From: Methylogaea oryzae
GTDB lineage: Bacteria > Pseudomonadota > Gammaproteobacteria > Methylococcales > Methylococcaceae
NCBI RefSeq assembly: GCF_019669985.1
Contig: NZ_AP019782.1
Span: forward strand, 364,501 to 428,500
Reading direction: 5' to 3'
Length of the DNA stretch: 64,000 nt
Each line of letters starts with the position of its first letter. The stretch's first letter is position 1. The translations under genes were made by a program, and so were the position numbers. The notes under the pieces were generated by a model. It saw only the letters and a program-made list of their open reading frames with translations. It was not told where the DNA came from and searched no databases. This document shows, piece after piece, positions 47,333 to 64,000 of the stretch.

Positions 47333-47338
47333 GGGCGG

Positions 47339-47360
47339 TTCGCCGTCAGCCGTCGGCGAA
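47339..47360. terminator. Stem-loop between convergent genes
   Basis: TTCGCCG and CGGCGAA pair around 8 nt in the 40-bp gap between the MfnE-like gene and the CPBP protease gene. There is no U-run on either strand, so it may be a weak or Rho-assisted terminator. Confidence 0.35.
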
Positions 47361-47372
47361 TGTCGCGCTCGA

Positions 47373-47981
47373 CTACCGCCGGTTACGCTGCGACTGCTCG
47401 GCGCGATAGCTTTGAATGACTATCCAGAAAGCCACGAAGTCGTAAAGTCCATGCACCACCATGGGCGTGAGCAGGTTGCGTTCTTCGCCGATGTCCAGCA
47501 TCACGCCGAGGTAGATTCCGGTGAAAAGGGCGAGCAGGCCGTACAGCGGGGTGACGCAGTGCAGCAGGCCGAACAGCACGTTACTTAGCATCAAACCGGC
47601 GCCCCAGCCCCAATGAGCCTCGGCCCAGGGTTGCAGGACGCCGCGGAACAATGCCTCTTCCCCCAAGCCTGCCAATGCGGCGAGCGCCAGCAGCTGATGC
47701 ACGCGGCAGGCGGCTAGTTGCGGAGCCAGGCTATCCAACAGGAAACGCCTGATTTTTGTCAGCTCCGGGTGCGGGAGTTGGTAGGTCCAGAAAAACAACA
47801 ACAGCAAGGGCAGCGTACCCAGTATGCCGTGGCTGACGGCGGAACCGTCGAAACGGAAGTCCGAGAACGGGGTGATGCCGGCGATCCAGCCCAGCGCGTA
47901 GGCGACGCCCACCAAGCCGCCTTCGAAGGCATAGGCTAGGGTTAGGAAGTTCGGGCGGCCATCGGTGCTTGGGGGTGGCAA
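47373..47981 (-). CDS. CPBP family intramembrane metalloprotease
   Basis: A 202-residue multi-spanning membrane protein of the CAAX-protease/bacteriocin-processing (CPBP, Abi) family. The glutamate pair and arginine of motif 1 are at 108-113 (EEALFRG) and the motif 2 histidine at 141 (LFGLLHC). A late GLYDFVAFW helix carries no motif 3 histidine in view other than VVHGLYD. The start is a TTG at 47981; no ATG gives a full N-terminus, so the exact start is uncertain. The target is unknown. Confidence 0.78.
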   Translation of the reverse strand: MPPPSTDGRPNFLTLAYAFEGGLVGVAYALGWIAGITPFSDFRFDGSAVSHGILGTLPLLLLFFWTYQLPHPELTKIRRFLLDSLAPQLAACRVHQLLALAALAGLGEEALFRGVLQPWAEAHWGWGAGLMLSNVLFGLLHCVTPLYGLLALFTGIYLGVMLDIGEERNLLTPMVVHGLYDFVAFWIVIQSYRAEQSQRNRR

Positions 47982-48108
47982 GTGGCTGGCTCCCTGGGTT
48001 TGCTGAAAGCGGCCGGTTGCTAAATAACCGGGCGGCTGCCCGGCGCGCGCGAGTTGTCGGCTGCGGGGCTGCGTCCGACCGACGTAGCCCCCATGTTACG
48101 CCGTCGGC

Positions 48109-48375
48109 TTATTCGCCTTCCTCTTCCTCTTCTTCATCAATGAGGGGGGGCTTGGGCGGCTGTGCCGGAGCCGTCGGGGCTTTTGCCGGCGACGGCGGGA
48201 CCGCGGCGCTGTCTTTGGGCGGTTGGACAGCCTTTGCCGGAGCGGCTTTTGCCGGCGCCGGTTTTGCCGCGTGCTTGTTCGCCGGCTTCCTTTCTCCTTG
48301 CGCTGCGGCTTGGGACGCCGGCGCATAGGCCAGCGCGGCGCCGATGATCAACGCGGCGAATTTATGTAATTGCAT
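48109..48375 (-). CDS. Small secreted Ala/Pro/Lys-rich protein with acidic tail
   Basis: An 88-residue protein with a clear Sec signal peptide (MQLHKFAALIIGAALAYA, cleavage near ASQA-AAQ), a low-complexity middle made of Ala, Pro and Lys (APAKAAPAKA-type), and an end of six glutamates (IDEEEEEEGE). The start ATG 48375 has an excellent Shine-Dalgarno GAGGAG. I do not recognise it; the composition suggests an extended periplasmic or surface polypeptide with separated positive and negative ends. It is encoded downstream of the PEPCK candidate on the same strand. Confidence 0.6.
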   Translation of the reverse strand: MQLHKFAALIIGAALAYAPASQAAAQGERKPANKHAAKPAPAKAAPAKAVQPPKDSAAVPPSPAKAPTAPAQPPKPPLIDEEEEEEGE

Positions 48376-48504
48376 GGATTTCTCCTCTGTTTGCATTGGG
48401 CGGGGAATGACGCGATAAACGTTAGCATATCCGAAGATGCGGCGGAAAAGTGCGGCCCGGCGGGCTCGGGGCCCGCGCGCGCCAGCCCCTGCGCCGCCCT
48501 TCCT

Positions 48505-51500
48505 TCAGCCTGGGCAGGCCTCCAGCAGGTCGGCCCCGATGGTGCCTTTGAGGCTCTGCAAATAAGCCGGCGATTTGATATGTTCCAGCGTCGCCTGGGC
48601 TTTTTGCAGACGGCCGGCAATGTCCATTTCCGCGGCCACGTCCTGGTGGCTTTCCTGGTCGAGGAAATGCTGGAGGTCGCTGCAGTGGCGTTGCCACAGG
48701 GCGATGTCGCGCCGCTGCTTGGTTTCCAGCCGTTGCCGGTACCAGTCGGACGCCAGCAGATAGTCCAGGGTGAACAACTCGCGGATGTCCGGGTGGCGGA
48801 CGTCTTTGCCCTGGTAGGCGCCGGTGGCCATGATGGTGAGCAGCGCCTTGAGCGGCGGGCAGGCGTCGTCGATGCTGCCGTCGTCCAGGTAGTGCTGGGC
48901 GGCTTGCTGCTGCGCTTCGACGATGTTGTTGACGCCGTCGACGAACACGGCCATGTCCTGGGTTTCCGGCTTGAGGATGGCCTCGTCCATGGCGACCGCC
49001 GGGTTGTCGAAGATCTTGCCCATGAAGGCGGCGACGAAGCGGTCGGTGATGCGGTAGCCGAGTCGGCTGGCTTGCACCGTTTTCCCTTCGTATTCGAAGT
49101 CTTCCAGTTTCTCCAAATGGCCTTCCCGGATCATGCGCTGCGGATCGCGTTCGTGTTCTTCCAGGCGCGCCCAGATTTCCGGGATCAGCAGGCTGATGTC
49201 GTGATCGACGCGGCGGTTGGGGCCGATGTAGCCGGCCGCGCTGGAGAAACCGGCGTAGCCGCTGACGATGAAGGACACCAGTGTGTTGTTGAGGTCCGCC
49301 GTGGCGCGCAGGGCGTTGAACGGCCCCTTGGTCAGGGCGCCTTCGCTGCCCGCGCCGGTGGTAGACGGCGACTTGCCGGTAACGCTGCAAATGAAGTCCA
49401 TGAACAGCTCGGGCAGTTCCTGGTAATGGATCGGGTTGAACACCGCCAGGGGGCGGATGCCCGGTTCCGGCGGGTTGTTGCGCCGGCCGGTGAGGACCGC
49501 GTTGACCGGCGTGATCAAGGCCTGATCCAACGGCACCCGGCGGCTGAGCCGCGCGCCCATTTCGGCGACATAGGTGCGCATGGGCTTCTGCAAATCCGGC
49601 CGAACCTGCAAATAGCGCGGATTCTTGCTGGGCTTGCCGCCGATCAGGCGCGGGTTGGCCGAGGACACCACGTATTGGCCGCCCTTGTCGTGGGCGGCTT
49701 GCAGCAGGTCGCGCATGGGCGCGGTGTACTTTTGGAACTCCACCACGTCCTCGACGATGTCCGCCAGCGTGTCGCCGTTGAGCGGTTCGAAGTTGGCCAT
49801 GAAGTTGCCCGGCTGCGCCATGTCGAATTCGGTTTGCTTGTCGAAACCGCGGTGGACGGCGTCGTCCGGCCGTTGGAACAGCCGGTATTCGCAGTTCTTC
49901 ACCAGCTTGACGCTGGCGTTGGAGGATTTGGGCGACAGGTTGGGGAGCACGTCGCGGCTCACCACCACCGAAGCGCTGATGTCGTCCTCCATCTGCACCT
50001 TTTCGGTGGCGATGAAGTCCTGCCGCACTTTATAGGTGTGCCAGTTGCCGTGCTTGCCCAGGCCGACGCGCAGGAAGGACGCCGCCAGTTCCCGGCCGTC
50101 CAGCTTCAGCGCATTGCCCGGCGTGCCGTTGATGATGTCGACGGACAGCCGTTTGCGCCAGTCGTCGCCCCATTCGGGCTTGTAGAAGCGCTTGATGATG
50201 AAGGCCTGGGATAGGATGCGCGGCGGAATCGTCGCCAGCCAGGCGTTGTACGCCTCGGTGTTGCTGGGAGAGGGAGTCAGCAGCTTGATGACGGAGCCCA
50301 GGCTGCGCTCGGCGCTCAGGGGTTTGCGGCTCGGGTCGCGGTCTTCGTGGCGGAATTCCGGCTTGAGCCGGTCGCTGTAATCGCGGTTGAAGATGGCGGC
50401 GACCTGGTCCATGTCGCTCTCGAACTCCTGCACGAACACCGGGCCGTAGATGACCGCGTCGTTGATGGATTTGGAAATTTCCGACTTGCCGCCGCCCGAC
50501 ACGGTGCAGGGTTTGTGGCAGAAAACCCCTTCCGCTTCCGTGCCGATCAAGCGCCAGGACGGGGCGGCGGGGTGCTTGTGCATCTCGATCTTGTAGCCGT
50601 TGGGCTGCATATAGGTCTTGCCGGGACGCAGCTTGATGCTTTGCTTGCCGGCGGCGGTATTCCAGCAGATGGTTTGGCTGCGCAAGTCCATGCGCAAATC
50701 CAGCGGCACGTAGATCAGGTCCGGGTGGTTGCGGTCGACGGCATAGCCTTCCGGCTGCACGTCCATGACCGCGCCGTAGCGCTGCACCATGGCTTCGAAG
50801 GAATAGGTTTCCGGATTTTGCCGCGTGCGGATGTCGGCGCCGAATTCGTCGCCGTGGTTGTGGCGCGGGAAGGCCAGGGCGCCGCCGGCATGCTCTTCTT
50901 CCGACAGCCCGAACAGGTTGGCGGCGTAGCTGATTTGGGTTTTGACTTCCTTTTTGCAATAGCCGTAGTAGTTGTCGGCCAGGACCGTGACGATAACGCC
51001 GTTCATGTCCCGCGCGGTGATTTTGAAGGCGTTGCCGTTGTTGTAGCGCTCGTCTTCGTTTTGCCAGCACATGCCGTCGCGGCGTTGGCGCTCGGTGGCT
51101 TGGTCGTAATGGGGCAGGCCCAGTTCCTTCTTGGTCATCCGCGCCAGGTGGGGGGCGAGGATGATGCAGCCGGTGTGGCCGGTCCACCGTTCCACGTCCA
51201 GGGCGGCGTCGTGTTCCGGCAGGTAGGGGTTGCCGGCGTTGCCGAAGATGCTTTCCAGAAAGTCCAGGTTGCTGACCAGGTTGCCCGGCGCGAAGCAGCG
51301 GACTTCCATGCTTTTTTCCGGCTGCACCGACGGGATTTCCGGGCATACCACCGGGCGCAGCAGCAGGGAGACGAACAGCTTGGCCTTGCGTTCCTCGTTG
51401 GCGGTAAAGGGCAGTTGCAGCAATTCATCCGGCGGGTTGAGGGCCCTGGCCAAGAGGCGGGCGAAGGCGAGTTTGGGCACGGACTTTTTGTCGCCCGGTA

Positions 51501-51969
51501 CCGGCAAGCCGCCCTCGGCCACGTGGAACGAGCCCTCGGTGGTGCGGCGGTCGTTGGCCGGGTTGTGCAGGATGCCCTGGCGCACGCGGTAGCTGGAGAC
51601 GATGTCGGAGGTGAACACGTCGCTGTCGGACGGCAGGGACAGTTCGCGCGCCACGCCGTAGCGGTCCAGCACCAGGCTGTTGCTGGGCAGCCGCACGCGG
51701 CCTTCGTCGCCCAAGTCTTGCAGGTAGCCGTCGAGGAACGCCTGGATGCGCCGGTCCACCGGACACAGGTAGTTGGTCAGCAGGCGATTTTTTTCCCGGT
51801 AGCTTTTCAGCAAATCCTGGGCGATGGACATGAATTCGTGGTCGCCGGCGTGCGCGGCCGGTTGCCCGGTGGAGGACAGCTTGAGGTTGATGTAAAGCTG
51901 CAAACGCTGGCGTTCGGCTTCCGGGTCTTGCGGCTTGGCGCCGAGGCCTAGGGATTTTTCGATGTTCAT
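48505..51969 (-). CDS. Probable pyrophosphate-type phosphoenolpyruvate carboxykinase
   Basis: A 1154-residue cytosolic protein without signal or membrane segments. The length and the P-loop-like SGGGKSEISKS at ~485-495 are features I associate with the PPi-dependent PEPCK described from Propionibacterium and Entamoeba, which converts oxaloacetate and PPi to PEP and phosphate (or the reverse). Other GTP-PEPCK motifs are not obvious, as expected for this divergent group. ATG 51969 (MNIEKSLGL) is the likely start. PPi-linked sugar metabolism is common in methanotrophs. The assignment is from memory of the family and should be treated as probable. Confidence 0.6.
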   Translation of the reverse strand: MNIEKSLGLGAKPQDPEAERQRLQLYINLKLSSTGQPAAHAGDHEFMSIAQDLLKSYREKNRLLTNYLCPVDRRIQAFLDGYLQDLGDEGRVRLPSNSLVLDRYGVARELSLPSDSDVFTSDIVSSYRVRQGILHNPANDRRTTEGSFHVAEGGLPVPGDKKSVPKLAFARLLARALNPPDELLQLPFTANEERKAKLFVSLLLRPVVCPEIPSVQPEKSMEVRCFAPGNLVSNLDFLESIFGNAGNPYLPEHDAALDVERWTGHTGCIILAPHLARMTKKELGLPHYDQATERQRRDGMCWQNEDERYNNGNAFKITARDMNGVIVTVLADNYYGYCKKEVKTQISYAANLFGLSEEEHAGGALAFPRHNHGDEFGADIRTRQNPETYSFEAMVQRYGAVMDVQPEGYAVDRNHPDLIYVPLDLRMDLRSQTICWNTAAGKQSIKLRPGKTYMQPNGYKIEMHKHPAAPSWRLIGTEAEGVFCHKPCTVSGGGKSEISKSINDAVIYGPVFVQEFESDMDQVAAIFNRDYSDRLKPEFRHEDRDPSRKPLSAERSLGSVIKLLTPSPSNTEAYNAWLATIPPRILSQAFIIKRFYKPEWGDDWRKRLSVDIINGTPGNALKLDGRELAASFLRVGLGKHGNWHTYKVRQDFIATEKVQMEDDISASVVVSRDVLPNLSPKSSNASVKLVKNCEYRLFQRPDDAVHRGFDKQTEFDMAQPGNFMANFEPLNGDTLADIVEDVVEFQKYTAPMRDLLQAAHDKGGQYVVSSANPRLIGGKPSKNPRYLQVRPDLQKPMRTYVAEMGARLSRRVPLDQALITPVNAVLTGRRNNPPEPGIRPLAVFNPIHYQELPELFMDFICSVTGKSPSTTGAGSEGALTKGPFNALRATADLNNTLVSFIVSGYAGFSSAAGYIGPNRRVDHDISLLIPEIWARLEEHERDPQRMIREGHLEKLEDFEYEGKTVQASRLGYRITDRFVAAFMGKIFDNPAVAMDEAILKPETQDMAVFVDGVNNIVEAQQQAAQHYLDDGSIDDACPPLKALLTIMATGAYQGKDVRHPDIRELFTLDYLLASDWYRQRLETKQRRDIALWQRHCSDLQHFLDQESHQDVAAEMDIAGRLQKAQATLEHIKSPAYLQSLKGTIGADLLEACPG

Positions 51970-52156
51970 TTTTCTAGTTGTTGTGGGCTGGCGTTGCCAG
52001 GTTGGTTGAACAGGCATGAACCTCAAGGGCTCAGTGGGCGGGCGAGCGGAAAACGTCCTGCGTCGGCCGCCGCCAACGGTTTGCGGCGCAGGAAGGATAC
52101 ACAGTCGATATCGCTATGCAACATGGGTGTCGGCGGATACGGCGGAGCGAAGGGGG

Positions 52157-53281
52157 TTACACCAGTACCAGATTGTCCCGATGGATCAGCTCGGGTTCGT
52201 CCACATAGCCCAGCAGTTCGGCGATGCGATTGCTCGGTTGGCGCAGGATCTGGCGGGCTTCGTCGCTGCCGTAGTTGGTCAGGCCGCGGGCGATTTCGCG
52301 GCCCTGCGGGTCGCGGCAGGCCACCAATTCGCCGCGCTGGAAACTGCCCTCCACGGCGATGACGCCGATGGGCAGCAGGCTGCGGCCGGCTTCCAGCAGG
52401 ACGCGCGCCGCGCCTTCGTCGAGAGTGAGGCTGCCTTTGACTTGCAAGCGGCCGGCCAGCCAGCGCTTGCGCGCCGCCAACGGCTCCAGGTCGGGCACCA
52501 GGAACGTGCCGACGTCCTCGCCGCCCATGACGCGCGTCAGTATGCCTTGCGCCGCCCCGGGGGCGATGACGGTGGCGGCGCCGGAGCGGCCGGCCAGCTT
52601 GGCGGCGCTGACCTTGGTGGACATGCCGCCGCGTCCCAGTCCGCTGCGGCTGCCGCCGGCCATTTCCAACAAGCCCGGCTCGTTGATATTGGCCTGGCTG
52701 ATGAGCTTGGCGTCGGGTTTCAGGCCCGGATCGGCGTCGTACAAGCCGTTTTGATCGGTGAGGATGATGAGCAGGTCCGCTTCCACCAGGTTGGCCACCA
52801 GGGCGCCCAGGGTGTCGTTGTCGCCGAAGCGGATTTCCTCCGTGGCCACCGTGTCGTTTTCGTTGATGACCGGCACCACGCCCAGCTCCAGCAGAGTCAG
52901 CAGGGTGCTGCGGGCGTTGAGGTAGCGCTGCCGGTCGGACAGGTCCTCGTGGGTCAACAGCACCTGGGCGGCGTGGAAGCCGTGCTGCTTGAACAGCGAT
53001 TCGTAGGTTTGGATCAGGCCCATCTGGCCCACCGCGGCGGCGGCCTGCAGTTCGTGCAGGGTTTGCGGGCGGCTGCTCCAGCCCAGGCGGCTCATGCCCT
53101 CCGCCACGGAGCCGGAGGATACCAGCACCACCTCTTTGCCGCTTTGGCGCAGTTGGGCGATTTGCGCCACCCAGCCGCCGATGGCGGCCTGATCCAGGCC
53201 GCGGCCGCCACCGGTCAACAGGGAGCTGCCGATTTTGACGATGACGCGGCCGGCGTTGGGAAAGTCGGTTCTGTTTTTCAT
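52157..53281 (-). CDS. proB: Glutamate 5-kinase
   Basis: A 374-residue enzyme for the first step of proline synthesis. The kinase domain ([50 protein letters not shown]) is followed by a C-terminal PUA domain (~residues 280-365). It lies 18 bp downstream of obgE, the usual rplU-rpmA-obgE-proB order of many proteobacteria. Confidence 0.97.
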
Positions 53282-53299
53282 GTAAACGTCTCCGCCGTC

Positions 53300-54426
<1,127 letters not shown>

Positions 54427-54478
54427 AGTTAAAGACGGTTGGGAACCATCGACGGCGGCGACCGGCGCCGCGCGCCGG

Positions 54479-54736
54479 TCAGCCTTGAACGATGCTGACG
54501 AATTTACGGTTCTTGGCGCCTTTGACGATGAACTGCACCCGGCCGTCGGTGAGTGCGAACAGGGTGTGATCCCTGCCCAGGCCGACGTTGACGCCCGGAT
54601 GGAAATGGGTACCGCGCTGACGCACGATGATGCTGCCGGCCTTTACTTCCTGGCCGCCGAACATCTTGACGCCAAGTCGCTTGGATTCTGAATCGCGGCC
54701 GTTACGGGAGCTGCCGCCCGCTTTTTTATGAGCCAT
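54479..54736 (-). CDS. rpmA: Ribosomal protein bL27
   Basis: An 85-residue bL27 whose N-terminal tail [15 protein letters not shown] reaches the peptidyl-transferase centre. It lies 18 bp after rplU. Confidence 0.97.
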
Positions 54737-54754
54737 TGCTACACCTCAGTTGAA

Positions 54755-55069
54755 TTAGTTGGCGGAAATTCCGGTGATCAGCACTTCCGTATAATGCTGG
54801 CGATGACCCGCCTGCTTCATATGGTGCTTACGACGGCGGAATTTCACGATCTTTACTTTGTCGTGGCGGCCATGGCTACGCACCGTTGCCGTCACTTTGC
54901 CGCCCTCGATATAGGGCTTGCCCACTTTTACCCCGGCGTCGGAGGACACCAGAAGAACCTTATCGAACTCCACGGTCGCACCGTCTTCCGCGTCGAGCTT
55001 TTCGATCTTGAGGTAGACACCGTTCTCTACCCGATATTGCTTGCCACCTGTTTTAATCACCGCGTACAT
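54755..55069 (-). CDS. rplU: Ribosomal protein bL21
   Basis: A 104-residue bL21 beginning [14 protein letters not shown] and ending with the rRNA-binding [16 protein letters not shown] set the start at ATG 55069; an open frame runs further upstream but is not conserved. A good promoter lies about 45-70 bp upstream. Confidence 0.97.
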
Positions 55070-55111
55070 CAGCGCACTCCACGAAGGCCACTTTGGATCA
55101 AAGAATAAATC

Positions 55112-55140
55112 ATTGTAACTTTCCGTTTTTTTTGGGTCAA
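55112..55140 (-). promoter_or_regulatory. sigma70 promoter for rplU-rpmA
   Basis: On the minus strand, TTGACC (55140-55135), a 17-bp spacer with a run of eight A, and TACAAT (55117-55112). The predicted leader to rplU is about 35 nt. Confidence 0.7.
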
Positions 55141-55148
55141 TGCGCGTA

Positions 55149-55154
55149 TATAAT
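55149..55154 (+). promoter_or_regulatory. Possible -10 element for ispB
   Basis: A perfect TATAAT, 90 bp before the ispB ATG, lies just beside the -35 box of the divergent rplU promoter. No good -35 is found at 16-18 bp spacing, so it may need an activator or be fortuitous. Confidence 0.3.
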
Positions 55155-55243
55155 GCGCCGCTTGCCAAAGCGGGAAAAACTGCCCCGCGACGCGCCAAAC
55201 AACGGCGAAAGCCGGTCATGACCGATCCCATGCACAACAGCCG

Positions 55244-56266
55244 ATGAGTTCGTCCACTTCTTCCAATCACGCGAAAAGCGTGGCCGGCGACAGCCAAGCG
55301 ATGTTCGCCCAAGTACGCGATATGGTGGTGGAAGAGTTGCGCGCCACCGACGGTTTGATCCTGGAGCGGCTCAGTTCCGACGTGGTGCTGATCAACCAGA
55401 TCGGCCACTACATCGTCGGCAGCGGCGGCAAGCGGCTCCGTCCGCTATTGCTGTTGCTGGCGGCCAAGGCCATGGGCTACAAAGGTCAGCACCACGTTAC
55501 GCTGGCGGCCGTCATCGAATTCATCCATACCGCCACCTTGTTGCACGATGACGTGGTGGACGAGTCCTCCCTGCGGCGCGGCCGCAATACGGTGAACGAC
55601 TTGTGGGGCAACGCCGCCAGCGTGCTGGTGGGCGATTATTTGTACTCGCGCTCCTTCGAGATGATGGTGACGGTGCAGAACCTGCGCATCATGGAGATTT
55701 TGTCCCGCACCACCACGGCCATTGCCGAGGGCGAGGTGCTGCAGCTGTTGAATTGCAACAACGCCGCCACCAGCGAAGACAGTTACCTGCAGGTCATTTC
55801 GCGCAAGACCGCCATTTTGTTCAGCGCCGCCGGCCAGCTGGCGGCTGTGCTGACCGGCGCCGAGCCGGCGGTGGAGCAGGCCATGTCGGCTTACGGCCAG
55901 CATCTGGGGATTGCGTTCCAGCTCATCGACGATGTGTTGGATTACAAAGCCGATCCGGAAGACCTGGGCAAAAACCTCGGCGACGACTTGGCCGAAGGCA
56001 AGCCCACCTTGCCGTTGATCTACGCCTTGCAGCAAGGCAGCGAGGAGCAGGCCGTGGTGTTGCGCAAGGCCATCGAGGAAGGCGACCGCGATGCTTTCAA
56101 CGATGTTTACGCCATCATTCAGGCGACGGACGCGATCGCCTATACCGAGCGGCGCGCCAAGGAAGAGGCGCAGAAAGCCGTGGAGTGCCTGGGATGTTTG
56201 CCCGCTTCGGCAGAGAAAGATGCAATGATTACGCTCGCGGGCTTTTCAATTGCACGCAATTACTAG
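55244..56266 (+). CDS. ispB: Octaprenyl-type polyprenyl diphosphate synthase
   Basis: A 340-residue trans-prenyltransferase that makes the quinone side chain. The two aspartate-rich motifs are [10 protein letters not shown] (~residue 105) and QLIDDVLDY (~residue 230). It is somewhat longer than E. coli IspB (323 aa) owing to a short Ser-rich N-terminus; a later start is possible. The divergent arrangement with rplU-rpmA is conserved in gammaproteobacteria. Confidence 0.93.
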
Positions 56267-56272
56267 TATAAT
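56243..56272 (+). promoter_or_regulatory. Promoter for tRNA-Pro
   Basis: TTTTCA, 18-bp spacer and perfect TATAAT (56267-56272), overlapping the ispB stop. The expected start near 56279 is 6 bp before the mature tRNA 5' end. Confidence 0.5.
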
Positions 56273-56284
56273 GACGGTTCATTT

Positions 56285-56361
56285 CGGGGTGTAGCTCAGC
56301 CTGGTAGAGTACTGCTTTCGGGTAGCAGGAGTCGGAGGTTCAATTCCTCTCACCCCGACCA
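56285..56361 (+). tRNA. tRNA-Pro (anticodon CGG), island insertion site
   Basis: A 77-nt cloverleaf with acceptor CGGGGTG/CACCCCG, discriminator A and encoded CCA. The anticodon loop TTCGGGT gives CGG. Its 3' 45 bp are repeated exactly at 63511-63555, so this gene is the attachment site of the island; the tRNA remains intact. Confidence 0.97.
56317..56361 (+). repeat. attL: 45-bp direct repeat within tRNA-Pro
   Basis: The 45 bp from the anticodon loop to CCA are identical to 63511-63555. Identity stops at once on both sides (preceding T versus A; following TTTTT versus AAAAC). This is the hallmark of tyrosine-integrase insertion at a tRNA 3' end. Confidence 0.93.
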
Positions 56362-56383
56362 TTTTTAAGGTCATTTCAGTACG

Positions 56384-57273
56384 TTAGAAGCCCCTCTCAG
56401 CAGGGGCTTTTGCTTTTTTGGGGCAACGTGAAATCACGTTCCCATCCAGCACGTCTACCGCGCTTTTCAACGTCACCGGCGACAGGTGGGCGTAGACCCG
56501 ATCCGTGATCCTTATATCGCTGTGGCGCAGCAGGCTAGAAACGGCCTGTATCGGCACGCCGGCTTGTACGAGCCAGCTCCCGAAGGTCCGCCGCAGGTCG
56601 TGCGGGTGGACGTCGTCTAGGCCCGCCGCTTTCACGGCGCTGGCGAATCCTTTCTTGATGCTGGCGATCCGTTCGCCCTCCTTATGAAGTCGGGCAAGAT
56701 GCCTCGCCTTGGGCACTTTCTCCGCCGCCCGGATCAGCGCCGCCGCTTCCGCATGGGTGAGCCAGCGCGCCCGTGGGGCCGGTTTCTTGAGCTTGCCACC
56801 GCCGAAGGGGTTGGGAATGTCCCATTCCAGTTCACGTTGCGCCCAGTTGATGGCGGCCCGGAGCAAGCAAATCTCCTTATTGATCGTCGCAGCGCCCACT
56901 CCCTCGCCCTGGTCAGCGTGGTCAGCTCTCGCCCGGTGAACGCCGGGTAAAGCTGTTTGGCGCTGAACAAGTCCCGTTCGTGGCTGCGCTTTTCCTTGCT
57001 CGGCCCTTCCAGGTAGGCCAGCACCAGGTCATCGAAGGTCCGGCCGGCCGGCTTAGGCGGCTGGGGTCCGGCCCTTCGCTCGTCCGCCGCCGTTACGATC
57101 CAGCCGGCGCGGACGGCTTTTGCTCGCTCCTTGCGCGGGTCTTCGTCGCGTCGAATGCCAGTAGAGCGCCTAGCTGGCTTGCTGCGTCCGTCGATAAAGG
57201 CGGCCCACCAGTATGGCGAGTCCGGCCTTTCGAAGATTCCATCGTGGTCCCGTTGTTTCTTGCGTTTTGGCAT
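56384..57273 (-). pseudogene. Tyrosine integrase with internal deletions and a frame break
   Basis: The gene starts well (ATG 57273, Shine-Dalgarno AGGAG, MPKRKKQRDHDG) and reads through the N-terminal and part of the core-binding domain to about GRELTTLTRA near 56902. The frame then shifts, and the continuation GAATINKEICLLRAAINWA is in another frame down to the stop at 56384. The C-terminal part also jumps from AEKVPKARHLA directly to a GERIASIKKGF segment, which omits the region that normally holds the first catalytic Arg and the Lys. HPHDLRRTFG (His-x-x-Arg) and the Tyr in DRVYAHL remain. It cannot be an active recombinase as written. Confidence 0.85.
56390..56421 (+). terminator. Hairpin after tRNA-Pro and integrase end
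   Basis: AGCCCCT and AGGGGCT pair around CTCAGC and are followed by TTTGCTTTTTT. It can terminate the tRNA-Pro transcript now that the original terminator lies beyond the island. Confidence 0.65.
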
Positions 57274-57644
57274 GCGCCTTTCTCCTGTTCGTGCACAGCC
57301 TGCCCTACACGCTCATCATCATGTGCGGGCTGCATATGCTTGGCTACGTCGGCGCGGACGCTTTCTGCCGGCACGCGGACCAAGCGCCGCACTTTCACCG
57401 TGCGCAGTTCGCCGGCCTGGATCATGCGGCGCACCGTGCCCCGGCAGTGGGCATCATTCAGGCCGGTAAGGGTTGAAAGCTGGCTTGACGCCAGGTCGTC
57501 GGCCTTCTTGTTGAAGCCGTAGATCTTGCGGATCAAGGCAAGCACCACCTTGAGCTGCCGCTTGGAGAACGGAAACATCAGGATAGCGTCCAACAGTTCG
57601 TTGGCGATACGGATATAACCATCTTCGGTCTGCGGCGACGCCAT
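57093..57644 (-). pseudogene. Truncated phage replication protein O-like gene
   Basis: Residues ~6-80 (YIRIANELLDAILMFPFSKR, VVLALIRKIYGFNKKADD, LSTLTGLNDAHCRGTVRRMI) match the winged-helix N-terminal domain of lambda-O-like replication proteins. After about residue 105 the sequence loses resemblance and overlaps the integrase start in another frame for 180 bp, so the real gene was probably cut off and fused to downstream DNA. ATG 57644 is 2 bp after the stop of the small XRE gene. Confidence 0.65.
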
Positions 57645-57646
57645 GG

Positions 57647-57853
57647 CTAGGCGGCGTTGTCCAGGGGCTCGTCGGCCAGCAGTTCGGCCGGCTTTACCCC
57701 CAGGGCGCGGGTCAGACGGCGCAAAGTGCTGATGATGGGTACGTCCACGTTGCCGGCCTCGATTCGACTGACGTAGGACTGATCCAGGCCAGCCAGCGAA
57801 CCTAGGTGTTTTTGGCTGTAGCGGCGCGACTGCCGCAGTTCACGAATTTTCAT
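57647..57853 (-). CDS. Small XRE-type regulator
   Basis: A 68-residue, single-domain Cro/C1-type helix-turn-helix protein: MKIRELRQSRRYSQKHLGSL, then AGLDQSYVSRIEAGN as HTH, and PIISTLRRLTRALGV. A strong Shine-Dalgarno GGAGGTGT precedes ATG 57853. Its size fits a phage Cro-like repressor or a restriction-modification controller protein. It is divergent from the second XRE gene across a palindrome. Confidence 0.85.
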   Translation of the reverse strand: MKIRELRQSRRYSQKHLGSLAGLDQSYVSRIEAGNVDVPIISTLRRLTRALGVKPAELLADEPLDNAA

Positions 57854-57876
57854 AGACACCTCCGAAAATGTCCTTT

Positions 57877-57903
57877 GGTCATTATCAAGCAAAGTAAATG
57901 ACC
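57877..57903. promoter_or_regulatory. Candidate operator between divergent XRE genes
   Basis: GGTCATT and AATGACC form a perfect 7-bp inverted repeat with a 13-bp spacer, centred at 57890 in the 65-bp gap between the two XRE genes. Position and spacing suit binding by one or both regulators. Confidence 0.5.
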
Positions 57904-57918
57904 CCAAGGCATAATGTG

Positions 57919-58293
57919 ATGATGGACATGAAAACACTTGGCGAGCGCATCAAGCGCGCCCGCGAAGAGCGGCGGCTAACGCAAAAACAGCTTGGCGAAA
58001 TGGTCGGGATCGACCAGGCTCACATTTCGCGCCTGGAGCGCGGGGAAAAAGGCATGGCCATCGACAGCCTGGCGGCCATCGCCAAGGCGTTGCATGTCAG
58101 CCTGTCGGACATCATGGAAGATGCAAAGGAAGGCGCGGACGCGGCGCGCACCAGGGATGGAATCAGCGACGAGGCGATGGAGTTCGCCAAGGCCTTCGAC
58201 TCGCTGCCGCCCAACCAGCGCGCCGCGCTCCGACAAGTGGCGAAAGCGCTTGTGGATGCGGCTGAAGAACAAAGGGGCGTGAAGGGTGGGTGA
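57919..58293 (+). CDS. XRE-type repressor
   Basis: A 124-residue protein with N-terminal helix-turn-helix (LGERIKRAREERRLTQKQLG, IDQAHISRLERGEKG) and a short C-terminal helical extension (AMEFAKAFDSLPPNQRAAL) as in small phage-like repressors. ATG 57919 has AAGG 9 bp upstream; ATG 57922 or 57928 are also possible. It ends 6 bp from the convergent vsr stop. Confidence 0.83.
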   Translation: MMDMKTLGERIKRAREERRLTQKQLGEMVGIDQAHISRLERGEKGMAIDSLAAIAKALHVSLSDIMEDAKEGADAARTRDGISDEAMEFAKAFDSLPPNQRAALRQVAKALVDAAEEQRGVKGG

Positions 58294-58299
58294 AGTGCT

Positions 58300-58716
58300 C
58301 TATTTGTCACTCCCGTGCAGAATTTCTCCCAGCACGGCCTCCAACTGTGGCTCCAAAATTTCGCATTCCCAAAGGATTATCACCTTCCATCCAGAGCGCT
58401 GGAGCGCCTCCACATGCGCCTTATCCCTTTCCTGGGTTTTTCGCAACTTGGGCCCCCAATACGATTCATTCGATGCAGGCACCCTCGCATATCGACACCC
58501 TGGATGTTGATGCCAGAAACACCCATGCACAAAAATTATTGTCCGATATTTCCTAAGCACAATATCTGGCTTGCCAGGCAACTCTTTCACATGAAGTCGA
58601 TAGCGCAAGCCAGCCTTGAATAGGCACGAACGAACGAGGTGCTCTGGCTTGGTGTTTTTATGCTTTATGGCCCTCATTATTTTACTACGGACAATCGGCG
58701 AAACCTTATCTGCCAT
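58300..58716 (-). CDS. vsr: Very-short-patch mismatch repair endonuclease Vsr
   Basis: A 138-residue Vsr that nicks next to T:G mismatches formed by deamination of 5-methylcytosine. The catalytic Asp51 (LPGKPDIV), His64 (FVHGCFWH) and His69 align by number with E. coli Vsr, and the zinc-binding Cys/His residues (GCFWHQHPGC) are present. Vsr usually lies beside its cytosine methyltransferase; here the methyltransferase is 3.2 kb away on the other side of the large methylase gene, on the same strand. Confidence 0.92.
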   Translation of the reverse strand: MADKVSPIVRSKIMRAIKHKNTKPEHLVRSCLFKAGLRYRLHVKELPGKPDIVLRKYRTIIFVHGCFWHQHPGCRYARVPASNESYWGPKLRKTQERDKAHVEALQRSGWKVIILWECEILEPQLEAVLGEILHGSDK

Positions 58717-58776
58717 CTAGAGATTCTCGTCAATAACCGCCCTTAAGCAGTCAGTTACCTTTCCGCCAAAACGAAA

Positions 58777-61700
58777 ATGAAAACAACGGCTAAAACTCTA
58801 GCACAGTCCGTAACCACTATCACTGCAAGCAGCCAGAACGAGACACAGCTTAGACATGAAGTCGAAAATGCTCTCGAAAGCGCTTGCAATGCGCTATCCA
58901 TCCCGTGGACGCCGTTTCAACTTGACCTCGCGGTAAAGGGTAGCGGGAAAACAACAAAGTTTGTTGACGTGGCTCATGGCGCCGTGGTTATCGAATACGA
59001 GCCGCCCAAATCTTTTCGAGGATCTGTAGGCCACAAACTCCGCTATGCCCGGAAACAAGCTGAGGAGTATGCAGAGCTCCTCGCCCACGAAGAAGGCCGG
59101 TCATTAGGTGAGTACGTGCTCATTGCGTGGGATGGAGCCCATATCAATTTCGGTCGTTTTTCCCACAGCAAACCGAATTGGGAGACGCCGGTTCCATTTG
59201 ACCCCGCGGCAGCGGAACGCCTTTTGAGCGAACTAAGGAACAATGGCGTACCGCTTGTTCACCCCAAGCTGCTATCAACACTTGTTGGGCCAGAGTCAGA
59301 TTATGGCAAGGACTTGATTCCGCTCTTATTCGATGCGATTTGCAAGGCAGAATCAGCAACCGCCACAACAAAAACAAAGCTGCTATTTACCGAATGGCAG
59401 CGCTTATTCCGGCAGGTCATTAGCTTCCAGCCAGACGCGATGAAAGCGCTTCTTCAGCGTCAGACGGTTTCGCACGACGAGGATTACCAATCAAATCCCC
59501 CGGCGTACCTGTTCGCACTGCACACATATATTGCCTTACTGGCAAAGATCATCGCGGCGTGTGCTCTTCCCAACCCGAGCCAGGACGTACGTGATGCTTC
59601 AGTGCCGACTGCTGATCGCATCCAATCACTAGAGTCTGGCGATCTCTTTGAGGCAGCCGGCATCTCCAACATGCTAGCCGGTGATTTTTTCTCCTGGTAT
59701 TTTGACGACTCCAATTGGGATCGCTTTGAGGCGCCCATACAGTCCCTTCTTTCTCGTCTTGCTGGCGTTGACTTTGACGTGAGCAAGAAAGCCCCGGAGA
59801 CAACACGCGATCTCTTTAAGGGCATCTACGAGAGCTTCATCCCTCGCGCGTTGAGACACGCACTAGGCGAGTTTTATACCCCTGACTGGCTCGCCGAACA
59901 TGCCTTAACCACGCTAGGATGGCCTGAAGACGCGCAACTCCTTGATCCGACGTGCGGATCGGGCACATTCCTTTTGGAGGCCGTGCGGCGACGGCTAGCA
60001 AAGGGCGCTCCGGACAGTGCCGAGCGCCTTCTTCAAGGCATTTATGGCATTGATCTGAATCCTTTGGCAGTCCTTGCGGCCAAAGGGTCCCTTGCCGTAT
60101 TCGTGGCCCCATATCTCGATGCAGAAAATCCTATTCGTCTCCCTGTATATCTTGCCGACGCCATTATCCCCGCCACAAAAGAAGGCGATGGCTTTTTCGA
60201 GCACACATTACAGACGGAATTTGGCAACAAGCCGTTCAGGGTGCATGAACGCTTATTGCGGCAAAAAGATTTCTATAAGTTCTTCGCCAGGATGCGCGTG
60301 TTGGTAGACGCTGACAGATCGCCGGCTGAGATCGCCGACGTACTCGCAGCTGAGTTTCCGCACTTGCATCTGCAGGGTGAGGAATTGGGGGCCATTCTCC
60401 AGACCGTAACCACCCTAGTAGAGCTGCATCAGAATGGCTGGAATGGCATTTGGTGTTCCATCATCGCGGAACGGTTTGCTGCGGCTGCCATCCCCACTGT
60501 CACTTTCATCAGCGGCAACCCGCCTTGGATCAAGTGGAGCCATCTTCCGCCGGACTACGCACAAATTATTAAGCCTCGCTTCCAATCTTATGGCCTGTTC
60601 AGCGATGATGCATGGGTAGGGGGAATCGAATCGGACATATCGACAGCCGTACTTTATGTAGCAGCGGACAGGTACCTTGCCCAAGGCGGCACCCTTGGTT
60701 TCTTCATCACCGGAACGGTATTTACTACAGAATCTAGCGAAGGGTTTCGCCGGTTTGTCCTCAAGAGCAGCAATATACCCCTGGGGGTTAAATCGGTAGA
60801 GGACTTCCGTGCAATTAGTCCGTTCGACGACGTATCTAATCATCCGACGCTCATCGTCGTTGAGCGCGATAAGCCAACGACTTTTCCAGTACCTTATCGT
60901 GTTTGGTCCGCGAAAGATGCGTCGGGCCGAAAGCTTCGGTCCTTTAGCGATGCCAGTTCATTTCTTGGCGTCGCGGAACACGTGGACCATCTTGCCTATC
61001 CCATTCCTGGGGGTGACCCTGGCCGTCCTTGGCTAGTGGGAACGGCACATGATCACACGGTCTTCGAGAAGGTTTTTTCACCTGCACTTGGTAAACCGCA
61101 GTATCAAGCGAGAAAGGGGGTTACAACTGATCGGAATGGGGTCTTTTGGGTTCACGTGCTGGATCGAACATCGCCTACAACGGTTACGATACAAAATGCA
61201 GCGGAAATTGGCAGAACACAGGGCATCCAAAAAAAGACAGGCCTCGTGGAGACCGAACATGTGTACCCTTTGCTTCGTGGACGCGGCGTTTCCTCGTTTT
61301 GTGCGGTGCCCGACCCTGATCTAAGGATGCTTATTCCCCAAAAGGGCATGCATGGGGACCCTAATTTGGTTCTGAGCCACCCAAAAACCTACAAGTTCCT
61401 GAAGGCCTTCGAGCAAGTGCTCGAAGGACGGTCAAGCTACAAGCGATACCAGAAGAAACAAGGCCATCCTTTTTATTCGCTTTGGAGCACTGGGACATAC
61501 ACTTTTTCCGAGTATAAAGTCCTTTGGCGAGAAATGGCCGGAAGCAGCTTCGCCGCCGCATATGTCGGTTCTATAGACGATCCGATCCTTGGAAAGCGTC
61601 TAGTTATTCCGGACCACAAGCTTTATTTCATCCCAGTCCAAACCGAGGATGAAGCCGCTTATCTAACAGCATTCCTTAACACACCTACCGTGGCTAAGGC

Positions 61701-61902
61701 GGTATCTAGATATGCAGCCGCCCTGCTAAGCCTTGGTGTTAGTGTCGTCGAATATTTAAATATTCCGAGCTTCGATAAGAGCAATGCCAGGCACATGAGC
61801 CTGAGCACGCTAGGAAAGAGCATTACGGGCAGGGGCGATGGAGCAACCGCCGAGGAAATGGATGAGCTAGATAAAACCGTGCAGGCGATCTTGGACATCT
61901 AA
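58777..61902 (+). CDS. Eco57I-like DNA methylase / type II restriction-modification enzyme
   Basis: A 1041-residue protein. Residues ~25-125 look like a nuclease-type domain (KFVDVAHGAVVIEYEPPK, a PD-(D/E)xK-like Asp and Glu pattern). The N6-adenine methyltransferase core follows: motif X GEFYTPDWLAEHAL (~361), SAM motif I DPTCGSGTFLLEA (~390) and catalytic NPPW (~582). The C-terminal third, with LYFIPVQTEDEAAYLTAFLN, resembles TaqI-type target-recognition regions. It could be a bifunctional type IIG enzyme or the restriction partner of the nearby C5 methyltransferase. Start ATG 58777; codons are more AT-rich than in core genes. Confidence 0.8.
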   Translation: MKTTAKTLAQSVTTITASSQNETQLRHEVENALESACNALSIPWTPFQLDLAVKGSGKTTKFVDVAHGAVVIEYEPPKSFRGSVGHKLRYARKQAEEYAELLAHEEGRSLGEYVLIAWDGAHINFGRFSHSKPNWETPVPFDPAAAERLLSELRNNGVPLVHPKLLSTLVGPESDYGKDLIPLLFDAICKAESATATTKTKLLFTEWQRLFRQVISFQPDAMKALLQRQTVSHDEDYQSNPPAYLFALHTYIALLAKIIAACALPNPSQDVRDASVPTADRIQSLESGDLFEAAGISNMLAGDFFSWYFDDSNWDRFEAPIQSLLSRLAGVDFDVSKKAPETTRDLFKGIYESFIPRALRHALGEFYTPDWLAEHALTTLGWPEDAQLLDPTCGSGTFLLEAVRRRLAKGAPDSAERLLQGIYGIDLNPLAVLAAKGSLAVFVAPYLDAENPIRLPVYLADAIIPATKEGDGFFEHTLQTEFGNKPFRVHERLLRQKDFYKFFARMRVLVDADRSPAEIADVLAAEFPHLHLQGEELGAILQTVTTLVELHQNGWNGIWCSIIAERFAAAAIPTVTFISGNPPWIKWSHLPPDYAQIIKPRFQSYGLFSDDAWVGGIESDISTAVLYVAADRYLAQGGTLGFFITGTVFTTESSEGFRRFVLKSSNIPLGVKSVEDFRAISPFDDVSNHPTLIVVERDKPTTFPVPYRVWSAKDASGRKLRSFSDASSFLGVAEHVDHLAYPIPGGDPGRPWLVGTAHDHTVFEKVFSPALGKPQYQARKGVTTDRNGVFWVHVLDRTSPTTVTIQNAAEIGRTQGIQKKTGLVETEHVYPLLRGRGVSSFCAVPDPDLRMLIPQKGMHGDPNLVLSHPKTYKFLKAFEQVLEGRSSYKRYQKKQGHPFYSLWSTGTYTFSEYKVLWREMAGSSFAAAYVGSIDDPILGKRLVIPDHKLYFIPVQTEDEAAYLTAFLNTPTVAKAVSRYAAALLSLGVSVVEYLNIPSFDKSNARHMSLSTLGKSITGRGDGATAEEMDELDKTVQAILDI

Positions 61903-61932
61903 TCTTCTCGTGTCACAGGCAGAGCCACGCAT

Positions 61933-63099
61933 CTACAAGGCTAGCGCGAGCTGCTCCGCCATGGGGCGCCGCTCGGTCCGCACAGAAACGAGCCCTTTCC
62001 CAGAAATAAGGTGTTCCAAAACGACTTTAGCAAGAAGCGGCGGCACCGCATTGCCTATTTGCTTGAATTTCGATTCCACCCCCCCTTCGGGCTCAAAGCC
62101 TTTTGGAAAAGTCTGAATCCTGGCGCATTCCCGCCAGGAGAGGCGCCTAGGGGTTTGCAGCACTGGTCGCTCTGGGTGGTTCCGCGTATGCTCATACTCG
62201 TCACTGAAATCCCACTTCTGCTTCCAGCCATCGGCTAGGTTGGACCAAACCAGCTTCATTACGGGACTCGCAGGATGCAGTGTCACGTGCCTCCAATTGG
62301 CAACGATCGTATAAGAAGGCCCATCCCAAGGAGCCTTCCGATTCCGGGACATGTAGTACCACGACATATGACCATCTGGATCGTGGGGGCGCTCATAGAA
62401 CTCACCAACAGGCCAGAGAGGCAAGTCCTTTATAACCTCACCGTGGGACGTGTACGGCAGGAGGTACGGCTGTTTTGGCGTCGCTTTTCCGTGGGTTTCT
62501 TCTGGAAAGTTAAAGACTTGCCCAAGGTCTTTTCTTACACCAACGATAAAGAGCCTTTTTCTAGCCTGCGGCACCCCATATTTTCTAGCGTCGCATAGCT
62601 GCGCGGTAACATGGTAGCCATGCTTCCCGATTGCCCCAAAAGTCTTAATTTGTTCTTCCAAAAAATGCCCTTTCTTTAGCTGCTGAAGACCGGAGACATT
62701 CTCAGCAAGAAAGTATTTTGGCTCAACAACTTCCAAGCACCTGGCAAACTGGCGGTATAAGTTTGTTCGATGATCATTTTCCGGGTCCCTATTCCCACCC
62801 ATAGAAAATGACTGACACGGATACCCTCCTATCACTAAACTGGCTTTAGGGTAGGCCTTCAAGACAGAAACATCGCCTTCATAGACATCCGTATCGGGGA
62901 AATATCGACGAAGGGTTGAACAGCAATCCTGGTCTATGTCGTTTGCAAAGATGATGTCAGCCCCGGCAAGCTCCGCTCCGATATCCATCCCTCCGCAGCC
63001 GGAGAAAAGAGATATGGTTGGTATGCCCCCGAGCCTTCGCCCCGGCTGAAATGCAATGTCCGGCGGTGTCGTTGGCGTTATTTCGTTGAAGTCTGGCAT
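61933..63099 (-). CDS. DNA (cytosine-5)-methyltransferase
   Basis: A 388-residue C5 methyltransferase. Motif I SLFSGCGGMDIG (~30-41), catalytic Cys95 in GGYPCQSFS, motif VI ENVSGL and motif X QIGNAVPP are all intact, so it should be active. I start at ATG 63099 (MPDFNEITP); the open frame upstream is not conserved. It is convergent with the Eco57I-like gene (30 bp between stops). The recognition sequence cannot be read from the sequence. Confidence 0.92.
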   Translation of the reverse strand: MPDFNEITPTTPPDIAFQPGRRLGGIPTISLFSGCGGMDIGAELAGADIIFANDIDQDCCSTLRRYFPDTDVYEGDVSVLKAYPKASLVIGGYPCQSFSMGGNRDPENDHRTNLYRQFARCLEVVEPKYFLAENVSGLQQLKKGHFLEEQIKTFGAIGKHGYHVTAQLCDARKYGVPQARKRLFIVGVRKDLGQVFNFPEETHGKATPKQPYLLPYTSHGEVIKDLPLWPVGEFYERPHDPDGHMSWYYMSRNRKAPWDGPSYTIVANWRHVTLHPASPVMKLVWSNLADGWKQKWDFSDEYEHTRNHPERPVLQTPRRLSWRECARIQTFPKGFEPEGGVESKFKQIGNAVPPLLAKVVLEHLISGKGLVSVRTERRPMAEQLALAL

Positions 63100-63120
63100 G
63101 GTAGAGCGTTTCTGCCTGCT

Positions 63121-63255
63121 ATGAAGTGGCGACAGTTGAGTGTAATGGTGCGACACGGCAACTATGCGGCCCAGAAGCACGAGCGCAACCACGACCTCAA
63201 GAAAGAGGCCCGCACGGAAGCCTCGGGGCGGTTCGCTGCCACATGTGTGCGATAG
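63121..63255 (+). CDS. Small unassigned ORF near attR
   Basis: A 44-codon frame, MKWRQLSVMVRHGNY onward, basic and without recognised domain. It may be the remnant of a larger island gene. The region 63256-63510 between it and attR holds no gene I can support. Confidence 0.15.
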   Translation: MKWRQLSVMVRHGNYAAQKHERNHDLKKEARTEASGRFAATCVR

Positions 63256-63430
63256 AAAACATGCGCTATTTTCGCACAACAAGGGTCCGATCCAACCAAG
63301 CCCAACCGGAAAGGCCCGCGAAACCTGGAGACCCAGAGCCACTTACGGCTGGCTCTCCTAAGTCACGAGCAGCTTGCCTGGCTGCACGTGAAATCGATCG
63401 TGAAACACCACCGTCCCTTAGCGGCATTTC

Positions 63431-63448
63431 CTGGCAACTTCTGGCAAC
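63431..63448. repeat. Tandem CTGGCAAC repeats beside attR
   Basis: CTGGCAAC occurs twice, starting at 63431 and 63441, exactly one helical turn apart and about 65 bp inside the island end. Such direct repeats can be arm-type sites of an integrase, but this is only positional inference. Confidence 0.3.
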
Positions 63449-63510
63449 AATTCGCGCGGGCAGGCTGCGCAAGTTTTTGATTACAAGCCGCTTTCCCTGC
63501 GCCCCGTGGA

Positions 63511-63555
63511 TTCGGGTAGCAGGAGTCGGAGGTTCAATTCCTCTCACCCCGACCA
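63511..63555 (+). repeat. attR: 45-bp copy of the tRNA-Pro 3' end
   Basis: Identical to 56317-56361, from the anticodon loop to CCA. The 5' half of the tRNA is missing here, so it is not a functional tRNA gene. Confidence 0.93.
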
Positions 63556-63564
63556 AAAACCCAA

Positions 63565-63598
63565 AAAACCCGACGCCGGTTACGGTGTCGGGTTTTTT
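63565..63598 (+). terminator. Original tRNA-Pro terminator, displaced by the island
   Basis: AAACCCGACGCCG pairs with GGTGTCGGGTTT and is followed by a run of seven T. It begins 9 bp after attR and was presumably the terminator of tRNA-Pro before island insertion. Confidence 0.8.
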
Positions 63599-63634
63599 TA
63601 TGTTCGGCGTATACCCATCGTTTGCGTTTTGATG

Positions 63635-63664
63635 CGGCTGCGGGCTGCGGGCTGCGGGCTGCGG
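63635..63664. repeat. 7-bp tandem repeat (GGGCTGC)
   Basis: About three to four copies of GGGCTGC in a row in the non-coding gap between the terminator and phoU. It looks like a slippage-prone short repeat; no function is evident. Confidence 0.7.
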
Positions 63665-63734
63665 GGAAGGGGCCGGCTATTGGCGCGGCCGGCGCAGCGC
63701 CCGCCGCGAAAGCGGGCGAGCGCAGGGAAGCGGG

Positions 63735-64000
63735 CTATTCGCCCTTGAGGTCTTTCTGGACCTGGTCCAGGCTGATGTGGCGGATGTCCTTGCCCATGGC
63801 GTAATAGATGACGTATTCGCAGATATTGCAGGCGCGGTCGCCGATGCGCTCCAGGGAGCGGGCCGACCACATGATGTCCAGGCAAACGGGGATGGAGCGC
63901 GGATCCTCCATCATGTAGGTGATTTGCTGGCGCAGGATGCTTTCGTATTCCGCGTTTGCCACCTTGTCGTCCTGCACCACGCGAAACGCTTGTTCGACGT
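63735..64000 (-). CDS. phoU: Phosphate-signalling protein PhoU, C-terminal part
   Basis: The last ~87 residues of PhoU, open to the right edge of the window (its 5' end is beyond 64000). PRSIPVCLDIMWSARSLERI and GDRACNICEYVIYY contain the second conserved PhoU helical motif with its metal-binding E(R)IGDR pattern. PhoU links the Pst transporter to PhoR/PhoB phosphate control. Confidence 0.88.
   Translation of the reverse strand, partial: VEQAFRVVQDDKVANAEYESILRQQITYMMEDPRSIPVCLDIMWSARSLERIGDRACNICEYVIYYAMGKDIRHISLDQVQKDLKGE

What the first reader, a model, noticed from the sequence alone, without database searches (positions are those of the whole stretch)
56317..63555. 7.2-kb island in tRNA-Pro(CGG) bounded by a perfect 45-bp repeat
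The repeat covers the tRNA from anticodon loop to CCA, and identity ends sharply on both sides. An integrase relic lies directly inside attL. This fixes the borders of an element whose only intact payload is DNA modification/restriction and two regulators.
Basis: seen in the sequence. Interest (0 to 1): 0.65.

Follow-up and report, generated by a model that had tools for sequence, protein, structure and literature searches.

The report
Decayed tRNA-proline island carrying restriction genes
A 7.2-kb stretch of foreign DNA sits in a proline tRNA gene of a methane-oxidiser-family bacterium, brought in by an integrase that is now broken, and carries genes that modify and probably cut DNA; this is an ordinary kind of genomic island.

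Summary
A 45-nt direct repeat (45/45) covers the 3' part of tRNA-Pro(CGG), anticodon loop to CCA, at 56317-56361 and again at 63511-63555, with 7,149 bp between. It is a textbook tRNA-targeted island. A tyrosine-integrase relic points at the tRNA, broken by a frame change and a net loss of 73 residues that in intact relatives hold the box-I arginine. A RepO/excisionase-like ORF and two XRE regulators follow. The lower-GC cargo (49-52%; flanks 62-63%) is Vsr, a type IIG-like N6-methylase/nuclease and a HaeIII-like C5 methylase. The same integrase family follows tRNA-Pro in 10 of 27 testable relatives' loci; three relatives have a same-contig partial tRNA copy downstream. The one held congener lacks the second copy, the IIG and the C5 methylase. 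Two corrections. The predicted empty site (56361 joined to 63556) was not found: the congener's tRNA-Pro is followed by a terminator homologous to the one inside the island's left end, then panC, so that test is inconclusive. And the IIG nuclease motif reads E-x-E where homologues read E-x-K. New member of a known kind; low interest.

The parts
56285..56361 (+). tRNA-Pro(CGG), regenerated target gene
   Evidence: ARAGORN; 77/77 identical in congener G001
56317..56361 (+). attL core, 45-nt 3' part of the tRNA
   Evidence: exact repeat
56385..56412 (+). terminator-like hairpin just after tRNA-Pro; overlaps the end of the integrase relic; homologous to the terminator after tRNA-Pro in G001
56384..56899 (-). 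integrase relic, C-terminal frame; a net 73 residues missing inside
   Evidence: PF00589; alignment to four intact integrases
56884..57273 (-). integrase relic, N-terminal part in another frame (ORF 56734-57273; homology covers at most its first 130 residues)
   Evidence: blastp to four intact integrases; hmmsearch
57093..57644 (-). ORF with a RepO-type N-terminal domain followed by an excisionase-like stretch
   Evidence: PF04492 75.2 bits, over its cut-off; TIGR01764 27.2 bits, E 3.7e-6, just under its cut-off of 28.8
57647..57937 (-). XRE-family regulator 1
   Evidence: HTH_31/HTH_3
57898..58293 (+). XRE-family regulator 2
   Evidence: HTH_3 2.5e-14
58300..58716 (-). Vsr mismatch endonuclease
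   Evidence: TIGR00632 154.5 bits, over its cut-off; DNA mismatch endonuclease structure 1cw0, E 7e-30
58777..61902 (+). type IIG-like protein: N-terminal D64-x8-E73-x-E75, then N6-adenine methylase (DPTCGSGTF at 390, NPPW at 581)
   Evidence: PADLOC REase_MTase_IIG 662.6 bits; alignment
61933..63099 (-). C5-cytosine methyltransferase; HaeIII-like, PADLOC DruM2 model 569 bits
   Evidence: (scanned as the longer ORF 61933-63342); start placed at the Met at 63099
63454..63459 (+). GCGCGG motif of the right arm, 57 nt from the core
   Evidence: same motif 59 nt from the core in G018, G010 and G025, absent there in G006
63511..63555 (+). attR core, displaced tRNA-Pro 3' fragment
   Evidence: exact repeat
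63576..63591 (+). terminator-like hairpin beyond attR, possibly the tRNA gene's original terminator
   Evidence: role inferred

Best explanation
A tyrosine-integrase element entered tRNA-Pro(CGG) by recombination in the anticodon-to-CCA part of the gene. Its own copy of those 45 nt rebuilt the tRNA (attL), and the original 3' part was pushed 7.2 kb downstream (attR). The repeat, the integrase sequence and the recurrence of such integrases at the same tRNA are shown; the recombination event is inferred. The integrase is now dead and the excisionase looks truncated and joined to a RepO remnant, so the element should not be able to excise with its own enzymes (inferred from the lesions). The remaining function is most likely DNA defence: a type IIG-like enzyme that would methylate adenine at its site and may cut unmodified DNA, a HaeIII-like C5 methylase that would protect its own site, and Vsr that would repair T:G mismatches from deaminated 5-methylcytosine (function inferred from families). 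The lower GC of the cargo suggests that it joined the integration module separately.
For: Exact 45-nt repeat ending at CCA and a complete tRNA at the left copy. Integrase sequence oriented towards the tRNA. Of 29 relatives' tRNA-Pro loci fetched, 2 were too short to test; 10 of the other 27 match the same integrase family within 1.5 kb, 5 of them nearly full length. The model was built from six of these loci; with each left out in turn, five still match and L025 does not, so L025 is not counted. G018, G010 and G006 have partial tRNA copies downstream on the same contig and strand, 3.3, 13.7 and 85 kb away. GCGCGG at -57 here and at -59 in 3 of 4 other right arms. IIG and C5 methylase absent from G001. 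Vsr 49.2%, IIG 52.4%, C5 methylase 52.3% GC against 63.2% (46000-56284) and 61.6% (63556-64000) in the flanks; whole window 59.1%.
Against: No clean empty site was found. The terminator after tRNA-Pro in G001 matches the hairpin inside the island, which a single simple integration does not explain without a further step. 17 of 27 testable relatives' loci, the congener among them, show no such integrase within 1.5 kb. In the window, the 10-nt repeat shared by left and right arm is near chance (16 of 300 shuffles as good); G018 gives no support (182 of 300); only G010 is clear (21 nt, 0 of 300). GCGCGG was picked by eye and occurs 8 times on the + strand and 2 times on the - strand in the island.
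Confidence: 0.9

Rival explanations
1. Two or more elements came in succession. The int/RepO/XRE part and the low-GC restriction cargo are remains of different islands merged by deletion, and the shared terminator is the scar of an older element in the genus ancestor.
For: GC step between the int-RepO part (62.0%) and XRE part (60.3%) and the cargo (49-52%). In 2 of 4 relatives' loci with a second tRNA copy (G025, G006) more integrase sequence follows that copy, as in tandem islands. The terminator is shared with G001. G001's next gene, panC, is far from tRNA-Pro or on another contig in 10 of 10 other genomes examined.
Against: Only two exact 45-nt copies exist here; no internal third copy marks a join. 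No integrase match follows the second copy in G018, in G010 or in the 1.5 kb beyond attR here. Cargo swapping inside one element would give the same GC step.
Confidence: 0.3
2. The hairpin at 56385-56412 is the native tRNA-Pro terminator, and the left end of the element was later lost, fusing the integrase end to it.
For: G001 has the homologous terminator directly after an identical tRNA with no integrase behind it. The hairpin type is rare: 7 pattern matches in G000 and 5 in G001, both strands counted.
Against: Integration places the native downstream DNA beyond attR, not at attL, and a terminator-like hairpin does stand beyond attR. The relic's tail after the last aligned residue (16-19 residues) is about as long as in four intact relatives (16-17), and its coding part ends 26 nt beyond the tRNA against 18, 18, 18 and 23 there, so it looks collinear with an intact integrase end.
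Confidence: 0.25
3. The repeat is a chance or non-site-specific duplication of a tRNA fragment without an integration event.
For: None beyond the lack of a clean empty site.
Against: Fragment ends at CCA, same orientation, 7.2 kb, integrase at the tRNA end, same tRNA used in relatives.
Confidence: 0.02

Closest known systems
tRNA-gene genomic islands as catalogued by Islander (PMC4383910; abstract and passages read)
   Same: Complete tRNA plus displaced 3' fragment in the same orientation, 2-200 kb apart, integrase sequence inside; the repeat starts at the anticodon loop (Islander's table counts 2083 islands with an anticodon-centred attP site and 3919 islands in all).
   Different: [quoted passage not shown] here the integrase gene is broken.
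Type IIG restriction-modification enzymes (PADLOC PDLC03630; plasmid 'N-6 DNA methylase' genes)
   Same: Match over residues 9-1015, 662.6 bits; methylase motifs DPTCGSGTF and NPPW present.
   Different: Nuclease motif is E-x-E instead of the E-x-K of 8 homologue rows; one other genome (G145) shares E-x-E.
M.HaeIII-type C5 methyltransferases / PADLOC DruM2
   Same: Match to M.HaeIII 1dct over residues 28-360, E 1.4e-42; DruM2 model 569 bits.
   Different: No other gene of a Druantia system was recognised among the 7 island proteins scanned.
Vsr very-short-patch repair endonuclease
   Same: Full length and over the NCBIfam cut-off.
   Different: Here separated from the C5 methylase gene by the IIG gene on the opposite strand.

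Membership tests
tRNA-targeted genomic island (Islander criteria) | tRNA gene and a fragment of it, 3' fragment downstream, same orientation | tested here: met
tRNA-targeted genomic island (Islander criteria) | length 2-200 kb | tested here: met
   spacing 7194
tRNA-targeted genomic island (Islander criteria) | contains or overlaps an integrase open reading frame | tested here: met
   ORF 56384-56899 is over the PF00589 cut-off
tRNA-targeted genomic island (Islander criteria), putatively active | intact integrase gene | tested here: not met
   two frames and a net 73 residues missing, with the box-I arginine segment; so it is filed as a decayed island of this kind, not an active one
tRNA-targeted genomic island | empty site in relatives | tested here: inconclusive
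   only one held congener, with different downstream synteny
Type IIG restriction-modification enzyme | N6-adenine methylase motifs | tested here: met
Type IIG restriction-modification enzyme | N-terminal PD-(D/E)xK nuclease motif | tested here: inconclusive
   D-x8-E-x-E; homologues D-x8-E-x-K
Type IIG restriction-modification enzyme | cuts and methylates a specific site | not testable with these tools
   needs biochemistry or a methylome
Druantia type II | other Druantia genes beside the methylase (gene set recalled) | tested here: not met
   only the methylase matches DruM2 among the 7 island proteins scanned

The most novel reading that the evidence does not exclude
Vsr, the IIG-like enzyme with an E-x-E nuclease motif and the HaeIII-like methylase act as one defence unit, the IIG gene having moved between the methylase and Vsr genes on the opposite strand, and the island is kept for that unit after losing mobility.
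Probability: 0.1. Interest if true: 0.4.

Novelty: new member of a known kind. Interest (0 to 1): 0.2.

Why it matters
It gives a mapped, immobilised restriction island at a tRNA gene that several Methylococcaceae-family relatives use as an integration site, with intact and broken integrases to compare at the same site. Beyond that it is ordinary.

Tried and rejected
Clean empty site: none recognised. The 77-nt tRNA was searched in 61 genomes, the own one included; the DNA after the tRNA was compared with the window for the 29 relatives' loci that were fetched, and the right flank matched none of them within the 1.5 kb held. A genome-contig scan for the exact 45-mer gave a single stretch, the congener's contig; a viral-contig scan gave none. 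The own genome may be left out of those two collections.

Cargo relatives: nothing confirmed in genome contigs or viral contigs for the IIG protein. Counting the own genome, the IIG protein is found at E<=1e-30 in 2 of 369 class genomes, 3 of 398 phylum genomes and 3 of 38 family genomes; the C5 methylase in 1 of 369 (own only, E<=1e-80) and 3 of 38 (E<=1e-60). In five plasmid records inspected, of 72 with a match, no vsr or C5 methylase is annotated within 5 kb of the IIG gene (that gene table is incomplete), and tblastn at E<=1e-3 found neither in those five loci nor in the loci of G677 (two), G804 and G145. The G145 contig ends just after the gene, so one side is unseen there. A conserved vsr-IIG-methylase unit is thus not supported.

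Arm-type repeats as proof that both ends belong together: weak in the window. L025 as a tenth-plus-one integrase locus: dropped after the leave-one-out check. Tandem integrases beyond the second tRNA copy: first read by eye in four relatives, borne out in two. A Druantia reading was rejected. Literature: two searches, listings only (11 of 11 papers, 10 of 1,224), except PMC4383910, of which I read the abstract and passages; no listed title names this island, which is no claim that none is in print.
Full report
What was checked. The 45-nt repeat is exact: 56317-56361 and 63511-63555, spacing 7194. The left copy is the 3' part of a complete tRNA-Pro(CGG) at 56285-56361. The neighbouring bases differ on both sides of both copies.

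Where it is. The window lies in a 4.02-Mb single-contig genome. The one held congener (G001) has the tRNA on a 48,807-base contig, the same length as the only contig hit by the exact 45-mer, from a MAG titled Methylococcaceae bacterium DP16D_bin.30. I take them as the same record; the family name for the window rests on that.

Integration module. The integrase matches PF00589 in its C-terminal part. Against four intact integrases next to the same tRNA in other genomes (loci L013, L016, L017, L029), the relic lies in two frames. Its C-terminal frame skips from residue 204 to 282, 204 to 274, 189 to 265 and 197 to 274 respectively; allowing for the query residues between or shared by the pieces, the net loss is 73 residues each time. 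The skipped stretch holds TGMR(R/K)GE and QKNGK in the relatives, which I read (recalled motif knowledge) as the box-I arginine and the beta-strand lysine. The ORF at 57093-57644 carries a RepO-type N-terminus (PF04492, over its cut-off) and, partly overlapping its end, an excisionase-like stretch matching profile positions 15-44 of 49, slightly under the cut-off. A deletion could have joined the two; that is inferred.

The site in relatives. Of 61 genomes searched, the own one included, 55 match the tRNA query at E<=0.001, and the 30 best places were fetched, the window's own among them. Of the 29 relatives' loci, two were too short to test and three others hold only 0.7-1.2 kb after the tRNA. 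Ten of the 27 tested have this integrase family within 1.5 kb downstream: nearly full length in L008, L013, L016, L017 and L029, partial, broken or cut in L004, L005, L006, L015 and L018. The search model was built from six of these loci; in leave-one-out tests five matched again, and L025 did not and was dropped from the count. G018, G010 and G006 have partial tRNA copies 3.3, 13.7 and 85 kb downstream on the same contig and strand; G025 has one on another contig than its tRNA. The repeated part starts at query position 33 in G010, G025 and the window, 32 in G018 and 26 in G006, so the upstream edge is similar but not the same in all. Beyond the second copy, integrase sequence follows in G025 and G006 but not in G018, G010 or the window. 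In G018 an ORF that I recognise as RpoD and then one that I recognise as DnaG follow (names recalled, no family search). In G000 that rpoD-region DNA is at 3.67 Mb, so gene order differs here.

The congener. G001 has an identical tRNA (77/77) and no 45-nt second copy, and neither the IIG protein nor the C5 methylase at the thresholds used; Vsr was not searched there. After the tRNA comes a terminator whose alignment to the window's 56376-56421 scores 45. Of 5,000 simple shuffles none reached it (maximum 25), and the tails of 27 other relatives score at most 25. Beyond the terminator there is no significant similarity: 355 of 1,000 shuffles scored as well. Then comes panC, which in 10 of 10 other genomes examined lies far from tRNA-Pro or on another contig. 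G001's phoU is on another contig. So the predicted empty site is neither found nor excluded, and the left border is known only to 56362-56434.

Cargo. Vsr is full length by the NCBIfam model and aligns to a solved mismatch endonuclease (1cw0). The IIG-like protein matches a PADLOC IIG model over residues 9-1015 and has both methylase motifs. Eight homologue rows (seven distinct proteins: L093 and L098 come from records of the same length and read alike) show D-x8-E-x-K in the N-terminal nuclease; the window and G145 show D-x8-E-x-E. E-x-E is known from BamHI (recalled), so loss of cutting does not follow. The G145 copy is itself broken. The C5 methylase resembles M.HaeIII along residues 28-360, and two phage records with a relative at 42% identity annotate it as a BspRI methylase, so GGCC is a plausible target (BspRI and HaeIII sites recalled), not a shown one. 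GC is 49.2, 52.4 and 52.3% for the three cargo genes against 62.0 and 60.3% for the int-RepO and XRE parts; the whole window has 59.1%.

Age. The attR copy has no change in 45 nt although it is no longer part of a gene, which points to a fairly recent insertion although the integrase is already broken (inference; 45 nt is a small sample).

Verdict. A confirmed, ordinary tRNA-targeted island with a dead integrase and a restriction/modification cargo.

Noticed in passing
window 58777-61902, residues 64-75 of the protein: The nuclease motif of the IIG-like protein is E-x-E; eight homologue rows have E-x-K and one related genome (G145) shares E-x-E.
   Followed up: partly
window 57093-57644: ORF joining a RepO-type N-terminus to an excisionase-like stretch, overlapping the start of the integrase relic.
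   Followed up: partly
L005 (G026), downstream of tRNA-Pro: A second integrase relic with the same kind of damage, a frame change and a missing middle, but at different positions, so decay at this site seems to recur.
   Followed up: no
L073 (G006) and L074 (G025), beyond the second tRNA copy: Integrase sequence follows the second tRNA copy in these two, suggesting tandem islands; not found in G018 or G010.
   Followed up: partly
L069 (G001 contig C265), about 4350-4465: A second stretch similar to part of phoU lies beyond the phoU gene in the congener.
   Followed up: no
L103 and L104 (viral contigs): Two neighbouring C5-methylase ORFs with a vsr match on the same stretch, strong in L103 and weak in L104.
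   Followed up: no
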